Source of the DNA: Antitrichia curtipendula
Taxonomy: Eukaryota; Streptophyta; Bryopsida; Hypnales; Leucodontaceae
Direction: 5' to 3'
Assembly: GCA_951230915.1 (NCBI GenBank)
Contig: OX579638.1
Coordinates: 30,336,696 to 30,400,695 of the forward strand
Length of the DNA stretch: 64,000 nt
Made by a program: the position numbers and the translations under genes. A model generated the notes under the pieces. It made no database searches and had not been told where the DNA came from. It saw only the letters and a list, made by a program, of their open reading frames with translations. This document shows, one piece after another, positions 28,841 through 64,000 of the stretch. Each line of letters begins with the position of its first letter. The stretch's first letter is position 1.

Positions 28841-28845
28841 TTTAA

Positions 28846-28988
28846 CTGTTAAAGGACATGGGTCCTCATAACCAAGGTAGTCACCAAATTTTGCTTTGAT
28901 TATTGGACCAATAGGTGCATTATTTGTTTTTACATTTAGCAATGAAGTCATCCATCAACCACTTTTTAGCCTCAAAGTCCTTTAAGGG
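28846..28988. mobile_element. 143-bp TTAA-flanked MITE
   Basis: The element is bounded by TTAA at 28842-28845 and 28989-28992. Its ends are CTGTTAAAGGAC on the left and, reverse-complemented, CCCTTAAAGGAC on the right, a 12-bp inverted repeat with two mismatches. The ends resemble those of the larger TTAA-flanked elements at 49.3 and 59.7-62.8 kb. It is non-coding. Confidence 0.5.
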
Positions 28989-28999
28989 TTAAAGGGACA

Positions 29000-48915: not shown

Positions 48916-49027
48916 ACGCGATATGAACTCCCTGTAGAAGTCCACCGGAACATGTGTCCGATATATGATGCCAGAAATTGAATTTAATGCCAGAAATTAC
49001 TCTGCTAGAAGCTCGCTTAACCCTTAA

Positions 49028-49249
49028 CCCTTGAAGGACGGACCGGTAGCCGTGGAAATCATGTATTTTGATTCCGTGTGACATCATCTACTTTGAAAAA
49101 GCCTAATATATTCTTTGGAAGTTAAAGAACTGTTAAAGATCTTTCCTTTCCACTCCTAATACTGAAGATGAAAAGTTGCACTCCTGTCCTGTAGGGAAAG
49201 ATTCTTTGTCATTCAAAGGACGCAGAACGTCCTCGTCGACATTCAAGGG
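49028..49249. mobile_element. 222-bp TTAA-flanked MITE, uninterrupted copy
   Basis: It is bounded by TTAA at 49024-49027 and 49250-49253, with terminal inverted repeat CCCTTGAA. Internally it aligns with the copy at 49254-50269 (shared CCGTGTGA, TTGGAAGT, TCGTCGAC/GTGTCGAC and ATTCAAGGG/GTTCAAGAG blocks). An extra TTAACCC precedes it at 49017. It is non-coding and serves as an empty-site reference for the insertion in the next copy. Confidence 0.75.
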
Positions 49250-49253
49250 TTAA

Positions 49254-50269
49254 AGGACGAGGGGGTGACCTTAAAAATCATTTGTTTTCATTACCGTGTG
49301 AATCATTGGCTTAACTCCTAAAACCCCGCTTGTCCCCTCGGGGGACAATTTGGGTCTGGGTAGGTTCTTATTGTCTCAATTTGAAGTTAAATTTTTTGAG
49401 ATTTTTTGAGGTTGTATAGCTTTGCAAGAGCTTTGTGGATATATAATTTTGTTTCAATCGGATGCCGGATGAAAAAGTTATGGCACAATGAGCAAGTAAT
49501 GGAGATTAGCGGGCAGCCCAAAAAAATTACAAAAAGTCAAAATAATTTTTTTCCTAAAAGATTATGTTTTTACCTATACGTGAAGCTTTGATTCATTCTA
49601 TTTGGACTAGGGATGAGAAAGTTATGGACAATCTTAGTTTTTCGGGCAATTTAAGCATCTTCTTGAAAAAAAACTTTTTGTTCAACTTTGAATGCTAATA
49701 TCTTCCAATCCGTACGGTGAAATTTGATGAAATTTTTACTACATGATCTCAGACAAGTTAAGTACAAGATCCTATGATTAAATTTCCAAAAAAACAAAAA
49801 ATGCTTTTTCTTATGTGAATACAATAGAAGTGGTGCATTAGATGAGAAATCAGCCCTGTGGAAGGTTGCGTGTTCCCAACTTGTGAGAACTCGGGGCCGC
49901 CGACGTGGCCGAGCGATGACCACGTCGGAAAAAAATGAATTTTTTTTTCAAAAAAAAAATGATTTTTTTTTTTTTTCTTCGGGAACAGCCGTTCTCTGAA
50001 ATTGCGGGGGGACCAACGTCGGCCCGAAACAGGCTCGAAACGGCCCTCTCGACCCCCAAAAACTCATCTAATGGTTTTGAGTGGTTTTTGGCAAAAAACA
50101 CCCTTGGAGTTTTAGGGGTTAAGAAATAGCAAAAGCACTCATTGGAAGTCAAACTACTATAAAAGACTTCCCCTTTTCACAACAAAAATATGAGGATGAA
50201 TAGTTGTACTTTTGTCCTACTAGAGTGATTCCCTGTCATCCTCTGGACGTCCGTGTCGACGTTCAAGAG
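49254..50269. mobile_element. Second MITE copy, interrupted by a TTAA insertion
   Basis: The copy starts after the shared TTAA (49250-49253) with AGGACGAGGGGGTGACC and ends GTTCAAGAG before TTAA at 50270-50273. Its two halves, 49254-49310 and 50123-50269, align with the left and right parts of the 49028-49249 copy. An 804-bp element sits between them at a TTAA. Confidence 0.75.
49315..50118. mobile_element. 804-bp TTAA-inserted element with CCYCTAAAAC-like ends
   Basis: It is flanked by TTAA at 49311-49314 and 50119-50122. Ends are CTCCTAAAACCCC and, reverse-complemented, CCCCTAAAACTCC. It interrupts the MITE copy at 49254-50269, and the neighbouring copy shows the uninterrupted site. Internal blocks (GATTCATTCTATTTGGACTAG at 49590, GCTAATATCTTCCAATCC at 49694) match the elements at 60.9-62.5 kb in the same order. 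No open reading frame of transposase size is present, so it is non-autonomous. TTAA target plus CCC-type ends resembles piggyBac. Confidence 0.75.
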
Positions 50270-50289
50270 TTAAGTGGTAGTTCCTCACT

Positions 50290-55972: not shown

Positions 55973-58294
55973 CTATCGAGAGGGATCGCCGGAGGTCGAG
56001 CCCACGGATCGATGCCTCGCGAGTCCCAGGCTGCTGAGAGCGGTGTAATTTTCCACGACGGGCTTCTTTTCAGGCAGCTCCGGAGCTGGGGCTCTCCCGA
56101 TGAGGATTTGCCACACCAATGCCATGTTGGGGCGCATGCTGGGATCCGGGTGCGCGCACGCCAGGCCGATGTGCAGCAGCGTGGTCATCTGTTTCTGCGT
56201 GTACGTATGATTCCCCAGGCGGTGGTCGACGGTTCGCTGAACCTCGCCTTCCTCATACCCCCGCCACACGGCGTCGAGCAGCACGCGGTCCTCCTGGGGC
56301 CCCTCCCAGTCCAGCGGGAGGCGCCCGCAGGCCAGCGCCAGCGTGAGAATACCGAAGCTGAAGACGTCGGACTTCACGGTGGGTTTGCCCGTGAATGGGA
56401 TCTCCGGTGCCATGTATCCGAGCGTCCCGTCCATTACGGTGGACTCCGCCAGCGTGTTGTGATCCACCAGCGACGCGTGGCTGAAGTTGCCCAGGTGAGC
56501 ATTGCCGGCCGCGTCCAGGAGGACATTACTGGGCTTCACGTCGCGGTGCAGCACACACTGCTCCCACTCCTCGTGCAGGTACGTCAACCCTGCGGCCACG
56601 CCCATGAGGACTCGGTGCCTGTCATGAAAGCTAAGAAAACCCTCGACGTCGCTGCTCAAGAGCAGTAGCTTGTCCAGGCTCCCCCCGGGCATGTAGTCGT
56701 ACACCAGGTACAGCTTGCTCTTCTCCGGGCATTTGCACCAGCCCAGCAGCTGCACGAGATTCGGGTGGCGAATGCGCCCGAGCACCATCGCCTTGTTCAA
56801 AAACTCACTGCTGATATTGTCCAGCGTGAGCTCCTTGACGGCCACGAGAGCCCCGTTGTCACGCAGCACTCCCATATACACGGGTCGCCTCTCGAGCGTC
56901 CCGCCGATCACCTGTTTCTCGCTGAAATTCTTCGTGGCTTGGGCGAGCTCCTTCAGAGAGAACAGCACGGGTTCGTTGTAGTCTCGCTTGGGCTTCGTCG
57001 TCGGCACACAGCACATGACAACCTTCCCCTCTGCATTTCGGTTCACAGGCTCTGCCACCGGCACCGGCACCGACTTGGGCTCCATAGCTTGCTCTGGAAT
57101 TGGATTCATGCCATTTTTCTCTTTTGTTTTGTTATATACCGGCAGATCAATTTCGGCTGGAGTTGGCGGTTTCTGCACAGGTGGAGCTTCGACATCGGAC
57201 GCTTTCACAAGTTTGTTCGCGACAAGAGCAGCAGCGCCCTTCGCAGACACCGGCCCCGAGTTCGACTTACTCTCGACTACTGCGTATTCTGAGGCGCTCG
57301 GCTTCTTTCTGCAGTAGCAGCAATAAACGCAGATAAGCAGGGCGACGATGGCGCTGCCGCCGATTGCTGCTGGAATCCCGATCACCAAAGCTCTGTAGCT
57401 CGCGCAACCATCAAATCGGTAGCACTTGTACGAGACGTGAGGTGGTGCTGGCCCTGGCGAGTCTCCTCCCGCGTCGGAGGACGATCGAGAGGTACTGAAC
57501 CCCCATGAATAAATCTCGGTAGTCTGGTTGCACATCACTCCGCTGCTCCCTGAAAATCCCACGAACATGTAATCCTGGAACACCGGCTGCAGGGACACGT
57601 TCTGTATTGTCCATTTCGCAATCGTAGTATTCACACTCGTCGCATTCCGGAGATCCACCTGCAAGCTGTCTACTGTTCCGTTGTACGTGATCTTCGTGAG
57701 AAACGTCCCCTTGTTGACGAGGCTGGTGCAATTCGAAGCAGATGGGCACAAGTCGTACATGGAGGTGGACTTCACGCTGTTGAGATCCACTCCCATGTGC
57801 GAACCACTGGGATCGCCAACATCTATGTCCAGGGAAGTGTCAAACTCCACTGCAAAAAGGGAATTCGTTCGTGCCCCATCATTCGTTGCAGTTGTTAGTC
57901 CCAGGTACTCCCCACTCTGCCCAACCGAGCGGTTATCCTGCCCAATTTGAAAAGCGAAACCGCCGCATCCTGCAGTGAGACTGGCATTGCCCAGATTGAT
58001 GATGGCGAACGTGAAGTTAGTGGAGAAGGAAGCGAAGGAGCGTGTGCTGGCTTCCTTGAACTGCACTGGTTTGGAATACACGGCTCGACCCACAGTTGCC
58101 ACACCGGTCATGGAGTTCAGCACCAATCTTGGTGGTCCAGTGGTGTTGACAATCGAGGCATCTTCCAAGAGGCTCACGATGGGTACAGCGGAACTGAAGT
58201 TGGCAAAGTTCCACTTCGTGATCTGCCCTTCCACTAACGTCGTTGCAGAAAGCAGAACTAAGAGCAAGATGCTCCATCCACATGTCTTCGACAT
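55973..58294 (-). CDS. L-type lectin receptor-like kinase, probably a pseudokinase
   Basis: An intronless 773-aa frame. A signal peptide spans about residues 1-23. A legume-lectin domain covers about 24-270, with SFSTNFTF-like and VEFDTSLDID segments (Glu150, Asp152) and GVDLNSVKS. A transmembrane helix lies at about 303-325. A Pro/Lys-rich juxtamembrane region precedes the kinase domain (about 445-735). The ATP lysine (VAVKEL, Lys487), HRD (583-585), KPSNVLLD, APE (629-631) and SDVFSFG are present. The glycine loop is lost (IGGTLERRPVY), the alpha-C glutamate is Lys501 (EFLNKAM), and DFG is NFS (603-605). LecRKs sense extracellular ligands at the plasma membrane; this one is probably catalytically weak or dead and may act by scaffolding. 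Several N-glycosylation sequons lie in the ectodomain. The start is the only Met giving a signal peptide. Confidence 0.93.
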   Translation of the reverse strand: MSKTCGWSILLLVLLSATTLVEGQITKWNFANFSSAVPIVSLLEDASIVNTTGPPRLVLNSMTGVATVGRAVYSKPVQFKEASTRSFASFSTNFTFAIINLGNASLTAGCGGFAFQIGQDNRSVGQSGEYLGLTTATNDGARTNSLFAVEFDTSLDIDVGDPSGSHMGVDLNSVKSTSMYDLCPSASNCTSLVNKGTFLTKITYNGTVDSLQVDLRNATSVNTTIAKWTIQNVSLQPVFQDYMFVGFSGSSGVMCNQTTEIYSWGFSTSRSSSDAGGDSPGPAPPHVSYKCYRFDGCASYRALVIGIPAAIGGSAIVALLICVYCCYCRKKPSASEYAVVESKSNSGPVSAKGAAALVANKLVKASDVEAPPVQKPPTPAEIDLPVYNKTKEKNGMNPIPEQAMEPKSVPVPVAEPVNRNAEGKVVMCCVPTTKPKRDYNEPVLFSLKELAQATKNFSEKQVIGGTLERRPVYMGVLRDNGALVAVKELTLDNISSEFLNKAMVLGRIRHPNLVQLLGWCKCPEKSKLYLVYDYMPGGSLDKLLLLSSDVEGFLSFHDRHRVLMGVAAGLTYLHEEWEQCVLHRDVKPSNVLLDAAGNAHLGNFSHASLVDHNTLAESTVMDGTLGYMAPEIPFTGKPTVKSDVFSFGILTLALACGRLPLDWEGPQEDRVLLDAVWRGYEEGEVQRTVDHRLGNHTYTQKQMTTLLHIGLACAHPDPSMRPNMALVWQILIGRAPAPELPEKKPVVENYTALSSLGLARHRSVGSTSGDPSR

Positions 58295-58299
58295 ACTTC

Positions 58300-59670
58300 G
58301 ACCATGTGAATATATACCGACTCCTACACGAAGCTAGGTCTATCATCAACCGATCAAATCATCTGCCTCCTTCGTCTGATGCCCGGTGCAGCTTCGGGAC
58401 GAATTGTGCACTCATACTCCTCGGCATGAGCAGAGTCTCTCTAATTACTCCGAATAACCGTCCATCCCCAATCAGGAGAGCAGAAGTTTGACACGTTGGA
58501 ATCGGCAAGTCAACTTCATCCTCTAGCTCTAGCAACCAAACTCTGGCTTCACAGAAGCTTGCGTACCGACAATACGAGCTTGAGGATAAGAAAGCGGTAA
58601 ATCACTCGAAGCCGATCGGAATTGCACTCCGTCCACACCGATCTCAATCTACTACGAAGAGCCCGGTTTGATCAAATCATTGAAACTAATCTAGAAAACA
58701 GGGATTTCAGAATGCCTGCCTGCATTACCGGAGCACTGAATACCAGCAACTTGACAACTTGTGTTGACAACTGACGAGGCAACAAGGGAGAAGGCGTCGG
58801 TCCATGCGGAAGAGAAACCCTGTTGCCCACCCAGAAGATTCTCTCTTCCCAAAGCATCAATCAATAGTTAAATAACCTTATTGGGAGCATGCTTGCCGAA
58901 AACCCTCCTTACCTTTCCTTTTCGTGGAAATGACACCGAAGTCAACGTCAATTTCGTAGTTACCGCCAAGTAGGTTTTACAGATCAGCTGGTGTCAATTT
59001 GCAGACGATAGTATAGCAGACAGTTGTTTCCAAGCGAAGCACTCACTCCTTGCTTAGACTGAGCATTGCCGCGTTGTATTGGTTCGAGCGAGCGACGTAC
59101 AGTAGTGTTGGAATTTTGAACTTAGCATGTTCTGTTAAACTAATTATCCGCTGAAGGGAGAGTCGGTTGGTGAAACAACGACGGAGAAGACGGAGAGTTC
59201 TGCAAAAGATAAGCTTGCTTTACTTTGCCAGGGCCGGCAGTCCAGTCCGGCACTGCGTGATGGGTACGACCTTTACCGTCACGAGGTGCAGACTTTTGTG
59301 CCCCGGTGACTATGATAAGAAGTCCTACCGCCAGAATGGAATGGCTGGAGGAGGAGATGCTCACTAGTGGGCAGAGATGCTCACTCGATCCCTACCTGGC
59401 ATTGCACGTCTCCTCACTCAAAATGGTTGGAGACCCTCAACTCCTACCACCAAGGCACCAATTGCTCAGAACTCCGTTGGACTCTGCACAGTACAGTACA
59501 GTACAGTACGGTCCTTTACAAGACTTGTATGAGACGGAGTGTGGAAAAAAATTTAGACACTAGTTCAGTCGACAGTGCAGATTGTATGATAGTAGTGTTC
59601 AAGGAAAAAATAATTTTTCTTTTCCCTCATTACTTAACTAGGTTTCCAGACTGTGACTCCTCCTAACTTG
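58300..59670. other. Upstream flank of the receptor kinase
   Basis: No gene is supported. GTATATATTC lies about 15-25 bp before the start codon, too close to act as its TATA box. A short (AGTAC)n run, about four units, is at 59488-59509. The repeat-rich zone begins at 59679. Confidence 0.4.
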
Positions 59671-59897
59671 GACTCCTCTTAACCCCTAAAGTTCCTCGAC
59701 TAGGTTTTCACCAAAAAATCCCGCTCCCAAACTGCTATTTTTAGTGTTAGTACCAACTTTTAAATAAAAAAATCATTTTCGGACACATGTAACTGTAGGA
59801 TCTTGTAGTATGCTAGTTTGAGGAAACATAAAAAAAAATTCAAAATTTTCACCGGGTAGATTGCACAATATTAGCATTTGAAGTGACAAACAAAAAT

Positions 59898-60471
59898 CCC
59901 TGGGTACGCAACTCTTGTATTATACACTGGGGTCATCGGCATTAAAACGGCTTAGAGGACAACTTTTGTAAAAATTATATCAAATTAAAAAGACCAAAAA
60001 ATTGGGTGAAGATCAAATTAAAAAAAATTAAATGCAAAAAACGTTGGGTTGCATAAATATTAGAAAAAAACTTGCAGTATATATAAAGAATTGAAAAACC
60101 AATGCATAGTTAAAAAATTCTATACAAGAAGTTCCCTCCAATTAAAATTAAAATTCATTTTCAATGTGTGATTTATAATAAAAAATCTTAAATCTTAAAA
60201 ATCTTAAATTTTTATTAGAAAGCCCCCAAAGTTGGGTAGCTCGGCCTATGATACATGTTTTAAAAAAAAATCTCATATAATTAGGTTTTCAATGCTATTA
60301 TTGTCCTCAAAAATACTCATTTAACGTAAATAATTACATTTTTGGATTCCTTGTTGAAAGGGCTACAAGAGTTTTCTACATTAAAACAAATTATGTTCCT
60401 TGAGATTGGATTAAAATGCATTATAAGTGATTATAATGAGGGCCATATAATACGGGAGTTGCGTACCCGGG
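59898..60471. mobile_element. 574-bp nested MITE with GGGTACGCAACTC termini
   Basis: Ends are CCCTGGGTACGCAACTC and, reverse-complemented, CCCGGGTACGCAACTC, continuing as a ~25-bp inverted repeat through GTATTATA. CAAAAAT flanks both sides (59891-59897 and 60472-60478). The paralogous arm of the host repeat near 62295 has this segment uninterrupted with one CAAAAAT, a natural empty site. The 7-bp duplication does not fit a standard superfamily exactly. It is non-coding. Confidence 0.75.
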
Positions 60472-60890
60472 CAAAAATATTTTTGTTAGCCCTACAAAAA
60501 ATAGGGTAGTTCCAATTCACAAGGTCACATTTGTATGAAAAAATGTCTATGTTGTTGGTACTTTTTTGGATTCATTTTTCAAGGCAAGTTGGCTATATGC
60601 TTGAAATTTTTTAGATCATCTAGAATTGTACAACATATAGGAAAAAAATAGTAAGTAGAAATGTGTAGAAAATGATTGAAAATACTAAATTGTTAAGACT
60701 TCAATTACGGAATTTAAAAATGACAATTTCAATGGTTGTAAGGCTATAATAAACAATGTACATCCATGATTTTATTTGTTTCTAAAAATATTGAAAATTG
60801 AATTAAATAAAGGACTTCAAAGTTTATTTTAGAATAGATAATCTATAATTGCTTGCAAATTGAAACTCCTAGTAACTTTCATCTTATTAA

Positions 60891-62496
60891 TTCCTAAAGG
60901 ACCAAAGTGCATTTTTTGACAACATAGCATTTTTGGACAGCTCACTACAAATGGAATTTTTGTTTTTTTTCTTTGAAATTTTAACACAACATTTTTCTAA
61001 GTTTTAGCTTTAATGCCCAACAATTTTCATAAATTTTGACTAAATTGTCAAAAAGTTATTGAATGATATGTAGTTTTCATTGCTTGGCGGGCAGCTTGGG
61101 CAGCAAACAATACTTCTTTAAAAAACATTTTTTTGAAAAATAAAAATTTGAAATTATTTTTTTGGATTTCTATATAAAAAACTCTGAGTCATTCCATTTT
61201 GATTAACCCCTAAATGCCCAAGGCCTATTTTGAGCATCTTAAAATTTGCTCTAAATTGAACAAAAAGACAACATTTTGATAAGTTGTATCTTTTTTTTTC
61301 AAATTGTAACCATACACATTCAAACTAGACATGTTAGAGATCTCATAGGAAAAGAAAATACAACAATATCACATATGGAGTGAAAGATTATAATGTTTGA
61401 CCATGAGGGTGTTAAAACTATAAAAGTGATGTGAAGTCTTTCAATCCTCTTTTCACAAATCAAATCTAAAAAGTTGGTGACCAAAAAAATATGAGGTTAA
61501 AGGGCCTAACATGTATAATCCCATTCAATTTATGTCTTCTTAAAATCTCTTTTACAGGTTTTTTGAATGAATTTTAAATGTGATTTTTTTCCCAAGATCT
61601 AATATATTTGAGGCTCATTTTTAAGAGCTCTCAACACTATGAGAAGTCAAGATTGCAATGGGTACCCTTGCACAAAATTTTGAATAAAAAAATCACTATA
61701 ATTTATTTTCCAGATCAAATTTTTGATGCTAAAACTAAACTTCAAGAAGAACTTCAAAATATAAAATACTAAAATTAGCAACTTGGTTAGGTTTTATTTA
61801 AGTATTTAACTTCAAAATTTGGCAAACACCAGATTTGGGTGCCTTGAGATTTTTGGGGCTAATGAGATGAAAGTTATAAGGAGTTTTAGTTGAGGGTAGT
61901 TCACAAGTAGTTATGAAATCTCTATTCTAAAATAAACTTCGAAGTCCTTTATTTTACTCAATTTTCAATATTTTTGGAAAATAAAATAAAACATTAGGTT
62001 TAGATTGTTTATTTTAACATTAAAACCATTGGGATTGTTTGATTGGAATTTTCAATTTCACAAATAAATGGTTAACAATTTAGTATTTTTAATCATTTTC
62101 TACTTCTTTCTACTTACATTTTGTTCCCTATATGTTGTACAATTCCAAATGATCTAAAGTTTTTCAAGCATGTAGCCAACTTGCCTTGAAGAATGAATCC
62201 AAAGAGTTATAAGCATTTTGGAAACTTTTTTTATAAAGATCTGACCTTGTGAAGTGCAGCTGCCCGATTTTTTGCAGGGGCAAAATAATGATTTTTGTCA
62301 CTTCAAACACTAATATCTTGCAATCTACACGGTGGAGTTTTCTGAAATTTTTTCTACATCTTTTCAAACTAGTGTACTACAAGACCCTATGGTTACATTT
62401 GTAAAAATGTTTTTATTCCAAAATTTAGTACTTGTATTAAAAATGGCAGTTTGGGAGCGTTTTTGGTGAAAACATAGTCAAAAATCTTTAGGGGGG
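60891..62496 (+). mobile_element. Middle TTAA-flanked element, inserted in the outer copy
   Basis: It is flanked by TTAA at 60887-60890 and 62497-62500. Ends are TTCCTAAAGGACC and, reverse-complemented, CCCCCCTAAAG. It is homologous along its length to the outer element but in opposite orientation. Its own centre is interrupted at a TTAA by a third element (61207-61858). Without that insertion it is about 950 bp. No open frame of transposase size is present. Confidence 0.75.
61207..61858. mobile_element. Innermost TTAA-inserted element, 652 bp
   Basis: It is bounded by TTAA (61203-61206) and CTAA (61859-61862), taken as a mutated TTAA. Ends are CCCCTAAATGCCCAAGGC and, reverse-complemented, CCCCAAAAATCTCAAGGC, matching at 13-14 of 18 positions. 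Removing it rejoins the two halves of the middle element as in the outer copy. It is diverged from the other two and non-coding. Confidence 0.65.
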
Positions 62497-62808
62497 TTAA
62501 TCAAAATGGAATGATTCAAAGTTTTCTACATATGTGTAAGTTTAGAAAACCAATTTCAAATTTTTGATTCTGAAAAAAGTAATTTTTTATTTTTTTTCTT
62601 CTTTGCCTAGATTGCCTAGTTGAGGAAAAAAATACATATCATACAATAATTTTTTAATCATGTTGTCAAAAGTTATGATTATTGTTGGGCTTTAAAAAAA
62701 CTTGATCTCCATATTGTGTAAAATTTCAAAGAAAAAAATAAAAAATCCCATATGCTACCCAAAATTGCTATGTTGCCAAAAAATACATTTTGGTCCTTCA
62801 GGGATTAA

Positions 62809-64000
62809 TATTTTGCACTATAGAGTTTTGAGTTTTTTATCTTTATGGTTTGGAGTTGAGCACTTTTTTTTTTTTTTTTTAATGAAGAGCGAAAGGGGTG
62901 ATATATAGATGTTATAGTGGTGCTCCAAATTTCAACATTCATCCACATATTGGATAGAAAATATCACATCAATACATATGTATCATATGTTCAAACTTAT
63001 GTTTTCATCCACAATCGAGTGATTTTATCCTAGATTTTTTGAATTTGAAGTTTCATGGTAATAAAAAACTTCATGGTTTGTTGCCACTTTTAGCCAAATT
63101 ATTTTTCTAGTGCAATTTGGCACTATTTCACCTCCAAAAAATCTCAAGAATTGAAATGCAACTCCAGAGAATAAAATTCAAATTTTCTTTCAATAATTTT
63201 CATTCTTAAAATAATTTTTAGGTACTAGATGAAGTAATAAGATGGGAAAAAATTTATATCATTAATATATCTAAAATAAAATATGCCAACCCTTATGATT
63301 AAGTTGTTGTAGCAAGTAATCTACTCTCCATACTCCATAGATGGCTTAGTTTTGAAAAATTGAAAAAATTAAGTTTGAAAATGAATCTTATACACTTTTT
63401 TTTCGGAAGATGTCCTAATTGCCTATAAAATAAGACCCTTCATAACTTTCACGTCACTTATCCAAGAGGAATGAACCAATTTTGTTCAAAAATATATAGA
63501 TATATTCATTAAGAAATTTTATAAAAAAACTAATTTCAAGTTTTTTCATTTTATGGTTACCAAAGGCAAGGATTTTGTACTTAGGAAGGCATAACTTTTT
63601 CTTGCAAGCACCAAATGAAATAAAAATTATACTCCCTAGGATCTAGTTTTAAAATAGGATTTTTGATCCTTAAAATAGACTTTAAAGTATATTAACTAAA
63701 AACTAAAACACTGAAAATAATATTTTGGTAAGACTTTATTGAATTTCAAAGTTTAGTTGACACCAAAATATGGTGCCTTTGACATTTAGGAGCTAAAGAA
63801 TTAAGGCACATTTTGGGCATAAATTGTGAAAAAATGTCACTTTTAGGGCACTAAGAAAAAAATGAAAAGAAATGTTAATTTTTCAAAATTCAACCGTAGA
63901 TATTTGTACTAGACTAGTATGGAAATGTGTGGAAAAAAATTCAAAAACTTAGACTATATAAATTGAAAGATTATAACATTAGAAGTTAGAAAGAAAAAAA
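62809..64000. other. AT-rich repeat DNA to window end
   Basis: No gene is supported. At 63885-63985 an inverted, diverged match to the ATATCTTGCAATCT...ACTAGTGTACTACAAGA block of the TTAA family is visible, so another copy probably runs off the window end. A 15-20-base T-run lies at 62863-62880. Confidence 0.4.

What the first reader, a model, noticed from the sequence alone, without database searches (positions are those of the whole stretch)
59679..62808. Three TTAA-flanked elements nested inside one another at central TTAA sites
The interval resolves into a minus-oriented ~0.93-kb element (59683-62804). It is split at its central TTAA by a plus-oriented ~0.95-kb relative (60891-62496), itself split at its central TTAA by a 652-bp element (61207-61858). 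Every level is bounded by TTAA (one copy now CTAA) and has CCCCTAAAG-like ends. Removing inner layers leaves matching central sequence (TTTTGATTAATGAGATGAAAG and its counterpart) in both homologues. TTAA duplication with CCC ends is the hallmark of piggyBac, a superfamily I know mainly from animals and would not expect to be abundant in a plant. The repeated use of the same central TTAA suggests a preferred landing site within the family.
Basis: partly seen in the sequence, partly recalled or inferred. Interest (0 to 1): 0.88.

Follow-up and report, generated by a model that had tools for sequence, protein, structure and literature searches.

The report
Nested piggyBac miniature transposons in moss
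A stretch of moss DNA holds small jumping elements inserted inside one another at TTAA sites, and they belong to the piggyBac kind known mainly from animals, which this moss carries in very many copies, some with the enzyme that moves them.

Summary
The nest is real. Excising the 652-bp inner element rejoins a 950-bp middle element. The host is a moss-like 400-Mb genome. There, 38 of 38 fetched copies of the family have identical 4-bp flanks: 35 TTAA, 2 TTAT, 1 ATAA. Of 1713 exact copies of one end, 1593 follow TTAA. PF13843 transposases abound: 116 of 907 candidates were scored, all over the cut-off. Of 11 such loci fetched at length, 7 have TTAA-CCC ends on both sides. One 6,990-bp element with a 967-aa transposase frame has both ends homologous (69-71%) to the two ends of this family. 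The preferred central landing site is not supported: chance is about 1 in 7 to 1 in 9, with one counter-example. The surprise is taxonomic: a review lists six plant TIR superfamilies without piggyBac.

The parts
59679..59682 (.). TTAA, left target duplication of the outer element
59683..60886 (-). outer ~0.93-kb element, first block (interrupted by the 574-bp insert)
   Evidence: homology to the middle element and to genome copies
59898..60471 (.). further 574-bp insert with inverted ends CCC(T/G)GGGTACGCAACTC and CAAAAAT on both sides; not a TTAA element
60887..60890 (.). TTAA, left target duplication of the middle element (the central TTAA of the outer one)
60891..61202 (+). middle ~0.95-kb element, first block
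61203..61206 (.). TTAA, left target duplication of the inner element
61207..61858 (+). inner 652-bp element, a different family from the other two; 39 other places at 90-91% listed
61859..61862 (.). CTAA, right target duplication of the inner element, one base changed
61863..62496 (+). middle element, second block
62497..62500 (.). TTAA, right target duplication of the middle element
62501..62804 (-). outer element, second block
62805..62808 (.). TTAA, right target duplication of the outer element

Best explanation
The three layers are non-coding, non-autonomous piggyBac elements: two members of one ~946-bp family and one of a ~647-bp family. They were cut and pasted into TTAA sites by piggyBac transposases encoded elsewhere in the same moss genome, and each insertion duplicated the four target bases. 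The outer copy came first, the middle one landed in its central TTAA, and the inner one landed in the homologous TTAA of the middle one. Shown: ends, target duplications, order of nesting, large copy number, and transposase-bearing elements with homologous ends. Inferred: that those transposases moved these copies, and that the chemistry is that of piggyBac (hairpin ends, seamless excision).
For: Identical 4-bp flanks in 38 of 38 copies, with non-palindromic TTAT (2) and ATAA (1) proving a 4-bp duplication. 1593 of 1713 exact ends follow TTAA. Of 8 inner-family copies, 7 have TTAA on both sides and 1 has TCAA and TTAA. 116 scored PF13843 domains, all over cut-off. 7 of 11 transposase loci fetched at length have TTAA-CCC ends on both sides. 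The element C1:4387183-4394172 is homologous to the ~946-bp family at both ends in the expected orientation (E 1.7e-36 and 1.3e-12) and carries a 967-aa frame with the piggyBac aspartates and matches to 9c0f and 6x67.
Against: The ends of the autonomous relative are only 69-71% identical to the small family, and the family's bases 381-830 have no detected counterpart in it, so this copy is not the direct source. No autonomous partner was found for the inner family; L078 shares only CCCCTAAATG with it. Of the 11 loci, 3 showed one end and 1 showed none. 120 of the 1713 ends do not follow an exact TTAA and were not examined. Movement itself was not observed.
Confidence: 0.93

Rival explanations
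1. The elements are moved by another superfamily with 4-bp or TTAA duplications, such as Kolobok or Sola, and only look like piggyBac elements.
For: Kolobok also duplicates TTAA (PMC9587614 passage). Sola is listed for the moss Physcomitrella (PMC9033089 table); that Sola duplicates 4 bp is recalled.
Against: Kolobok ends are 5'-RR and YY-3' but these ends are CC and GG. piggyBac elements with the same TTAA-CCCC ends and homologous end regions are present.
Confidence: 0.04
2. The central TTAA is a preferred landing site of the family, so that members home into each other (an addition to the main explanation).
For: The homologous central TTAA was used in both outer and middle elements. In the small 49-kb family the 49311-50122 element and the copy at L018 chose the same TTAA.
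Against: Chance is about 1 in 7 to 1 in 9 in the nest and 1 in 2 in the small family, which has two internal TTAAs. At L023 the insertion lies elsewhere with the centre intact. The intact centre occurs 4184 times when 2 mismatches are allowed, a count that also admits the TTTA form.
Confidence: 0.12
3. The pattern is a rearrangement (tandem inversion) or chance TTAAs in AT-rich sequence.
For: The window has 504 TTAAs, and middle and outer elements lie in opposite orientation.
Against: Excision restores two end-to-end homologues. The same ends and flanks recur at 38 fetched places.
Confidence: 0.01

Closest known systems
piggyBac superfamily and its MITEs (solved relatives: piggyBac 6x67, piggyBat 9c0f)
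   Same: TTAA duplication, CCC ends, DDD transposase of PF13843 with a Cys-rich tail in the autonomous relative.
   Different: Land-plant host; very many copies and several lineages in one genome; frames up to 1261 aa. In the tree they group apart from three named animal PGBD4-like proteins.
Kolobok
   Same: TTAA duplication.
   Different: Kolobok ends are RR and YY; these are CC and GG.
Sola (Sola1 is listed for Physcomitrella)
   Same: 4-bp duplication (recalled); occurs in a moss.
   Different: Different transposase (recalled). Ends and transposase were not compared here.
Plant MITEs of the Tourist and Stowaway type (PIF-Harbinger, Tc1-Mariner)
   Same: Short, non-coding, AT-rich, high copy number, nested.
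   Different: Duplications of 3 bp or TA (recalled) against 4 bp here.

Membership tests
piggyBac | 4-bp target duplication, nearly always TTAA | tested here: met
   35 of 38 TTAA, 2 TTAT, 1 ATAA, identical on both sides in all 38; 1593 of 1713 ends
piggyBac | short inverted ends starting with CC, mostly CCC | tested here: met
   CCCCTAAAGG at both ends of the consensus; CCCC or CCCT at the ends of transposase-bearing elements. That CCC is usual: passage of PMC10813416
piggyBac | DDE_Tnp_1_7 transposase with three catalytic aspartates, in an element with the same ends | tested here: met
   P0121 within C1:4387183-4394172: PF13843 1.6e-77, D619, D708, D825; ends homologous at 69-71%. The window's own elements are non-coding
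piggyBac | Cys-rich C-terminal domain | tested here: inconclusive
   Cysteine-rich tail visible in P0121; no Pfam match to that part and its fold was not tested
piggyBac | seamless excision restoring TTAA | not testable with these tools
   needs a transposition test or population data
Kolobok | ends 5'-RR and YY-3' beside TTAA | tested here: not met
   ends are CC and GG in all 38 copies; Kolobok rule from a passage of PMC9587614
Sola | Sola transposase in an element with the same ends | not tested
   no Sola profile was searched
Tc1-Mariner or PIF-Harbinger | TA or 3-bp duplication (recalled) | tested here: not met
   TTAT/TTAT and ATAA/ATAA copies show a 4-bp duplication

The most novel reading that the evidence does not exclude
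Mosses hold a long-resident, diversified and recently active piggyBac lineage, separate from the animal PGBD lineages, that has produced thousands of non-autonomous copies and built repeat nests in a land-plant genome, in a superfamily that a review does not list for plants.
Probability: 0.55. Interest if true: 0.72.

Novelty: new member of a known kind. Interest (0 to 1): 0.62.

Why it matters
It places a transposon superfamily known mainly from animals, and widely used as a genetic tool, in a land plant at high copy number and with signs of recent activity (a 5.5-kb pair 99.5% identical at two sites). That makes two questions testable: whether moss piggyBacs were inherited or acquired sideways, and whether a native plant piggyBac could serve as a seamless insertion tool in plants. 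It also suggests that plant repeat annotation that does not expect piggyBac will leave such small elements unclassified.

Tried and rejected
Tandem inversion or rearrangement: rejected, since the excised elements align end to end. A TA or 3-bp duplication: rejected by the TTAT and ATAA sites. Kolobok: rejected on its ends. Contamination: judged unlikely, since the places lie on many contigs, among them large ones such as the 56-Mb C1.

Looking for element ends within 1.5 kb of the transposase domain gave no inverted pair in any of 20 loci; longer stretches were needed. The copy at L071 showed only a left end, L074 and L075 only a right end, L077 none. A paper search for statements that piggyBac is absent from plants returned unrelated papers. 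No named plant protein appeared among 30 and 42 transposase hits, but that search needs shared short words, so this is weak. In the tree 17 of 20 moss loci were used (L058, L061 and L066 dropped for short frames) and 51 of the 71 proteins P0122-P0192 (the rest dropped by length); its root is a midpoint and several long branches are unsure. In one search five minus-strand loci were translated in the wrong strand; one search corrected this.

Full report
OBSERVATION. Inverted similarity between its halves and BLAST of each block against the window show two homologous elements in opposite orientation, one inside the other. After excision of the inner element and of a further insert in the outer one, middle and outer elements are collinear from TTAA to TTAA: 722 identical of 923 aligned columns, 78%. 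The joined site ATTCCATTTTGATTAAT(G/A)AGATGAAAGTTA is restored in both. The further insert (59898-60471, 574 bp by my reading; the script cut it a base or two differently) has its own inverted ends and a 7-bp CAAAAAT repeat and is not a TTAA element.

OTHER TTAA ELEMENTS IN THE WINDOW. A scan for TTAA pairs bounding inverted ends gave 9 pairs from 504 TTAAs, 35 per million possible pairs; twelve control 4-mers gave 0 to 10 per million. Two of the nine come from the nest itself and some others may be chance. Two are convincing complete elements: 49311-50122 and 49024-49253. A second copy of the small 49024 element (49250-50273) is split by the 49311-50122 element, a second nest in the window (67% identity of the two small copies). 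A profile of the outer/middle family matches further old pieces at 33.4, 44.4, 49.5-49.8, 59.5, 63.3 and 63.9 kb, and a profile of the inner family one at 63.6 kb.

HOST. The window lies in a 400-Mb genome (303 contigs; G000:C6:30336696-30400695). A lectin receptor kinase at 55976-58333 has its best named hit in the moss Physcomitrium patens (61% over 95% of the query).

GENOME-WIDE COPIES. The query 59683-60000, which leaves out the TTAA, gave 40 scored places of 2716 first-look candidates, all beginning at query base 1. Of the 39 places other than the window I fetched 38 (the one on C296 was not fetched). All 38 have both ends, and the four flanking bases are identical on the two sides: TTAA in 35, TTAT in 2, ATAA in 1. 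L009 and L017 share flanks and so count as one event. TTAT and ATAA are not palindromes, so the duplication is 4 bp and not TA. The 38 copies are 937-948 bp long. The first 20 are 96.7% identical on average, and their consensus ends in CCCCTAAAGG on both sides with no open stretch over 90 aa. The exact 18-mer of one end occurs 1713 times (reversed control 0), and 1593 of these follow TTAA (93.0%). The inner family gave 4290 first-look candidates; the 39 other best places span the query nearly end to end at 90-91%. Of 8 fetched, 7 have TTAA on both sides (for L087 the script set the end one base off and I read it by eye), and L088 has TCAA and TTAA. First-look numbers are candidates, not verified counts.

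TRANSPOSASES. PF13843 gave 907 candidates; 116 were scored, all over the cut-off, E 5.1e-80 to 1.1e-69; 0 of 14 control genomes matched. Many frames have no stop, the longest 1261 aa. Of the 116 I fetched 11 at length: 7 show TTAA-CCC ends on both sides (L069, L070, L072, L073, L076 with L080, L078, L079), 3 on one side (L071, L074, L075), 1 on neither (L077). L069 and L070 are 99.5% identical over 5.5 kb with different flanks that begin at the TTAA, on the right after three further shared bases: recent movement.

PARTNER ELEMENT. C1:4387183-4394172 (6,990 bp) begins TTAACCCCTAAAGGACCAG and at its other end, read inward, has TTAACCCCTAAAGTTCCTTCACTATG. The 946-bp consensus matches its left end (bases 831-954, 71%, E 1.3e-12) and its right end (bases 1-380, 69%, E 1.7e-36) in the orientation expected if the small element is an internal-deletion derivative of this lineage. 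Bases 381-830 have no detected counterpart within it. Between the ends lies a 967-aa frame with PF13843 at 1.6e-77 and matches to piggyBat 9c0f (1.1e-21) and piggyBac 6x67 (2.9e-20). The aspartates align at D619, D708 and D825 (with D828). In 15 aligned relatives they are invariant but for one N in a manatee protein. The tail is cysteine-rich, though Pfam reports no domain there.

RELATIVES. Hits for this transposase are mostly unnamed; the named ones are animal PGBD4-like proteins at 30-31%. A profile search gave 42 hits, none with a plant name. In a tree of 68 rows the 17 moss sequences and 32 unnamed ones form one group (100/100) apart from 3 named animal proteins, and moss lineages are interleaved with unnamed ones. 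This suggests several lineages in the moss and not one recent arrival; the origin of the unnamed rows is unknown.

LANDING SITE. Middle and outer elements have 9 and 7 internal TTAAs, so using the homologous site twice has a chance of about 1 in 9 to 1 in 7. Of the 38 copies, 3 sit inside another known family member (L018, L023, L033). L023 landed at a TTAT of a family member whose central TTAA is intact. L018 and the window's 49311-50122 element chose the same TTAA of the small family, one of two internal ones. The intact centre, with 2 mismatches allowed and so including the TTTA form, occurs 4184 times (control 0). The count of filled centres did not complete. The claim stays open and unsupported.

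LITERATURE. From passages: PMC9033089 says plant TIR transposons fall into six superfamilies, and its table lists Tc1-Mariner, hAT, Sola, MuDR, PIF-Harbinger and CACTA. PMC6890710 tabulates 1230 PiggyBac pieces, 122 kb, in the fern Ceratopteris, so the label has been given to a plant at trace level. PMC10813416's summary says piggyBac has been isolated from organisms including plants, without detail in the passages seen. PMC7466625 passages on Physcomitrium name Mariner-like DNA transposons and hold no TTAA. From listings: piggyBac with mosses and DNA transposons, 0 papers; piggyBac with Physcomitrium patens, 5 papers, none about moss piggyBac by title, one checked meaning piggybacking; searches show none in the titles listed. 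Only open-licence papers are held, and Repbase and Dfam could not be checked, so a deposited but unpublished moss piggyBac is possible.

VERDICT. An ordinary mechanism in an unexpected host. The piggyBac reading is well supported, the landing-site reading is not.

Noticed in passing
59898-60471: 574-bp insert with 26-bp inverted ends (CCC-GGGTACGCAACTC type) and a 7-bp CAAAAAT repeat, inside the outer element; probably another MITE superfamily.
   Followed up: no
49024-50273: A second TTAA nest: a ~230-bp element, then a second copy of it split by an ~0.8-kb TTAA element (49311-50122) distantly related to the outer/middle family.
   Followed up: partly
28842-28992: TTAA-bounded 147-bp candidate with ends CTGTTAAAGGACAT / CCCTTAAAGGACTT.
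   Followed up: no
59503-59627 and 63278-63544: Old pieces of the outer/middle family in the same orientation on both sides of the nest; the outer element may itself sit in a still older copy (a fourth level).
   Followed up: partly
L009 and L017 (C1 at 19.13 and 19.08 Mb): Two 946-bp copies with the same flanks about 50 kb apart, suggesting a segmental duplication.
   Followed up: no
L074:1076-1734: An inner-family copy (77%) lies close upstream of a piggyBac transposase domain.
   Followed up: no
55976-58333 (-): Open frame for a lectin receptor kinase (786 aa, legume lectin plus kinase domains), 61% to Physcomitrium.
   Followed up: partly
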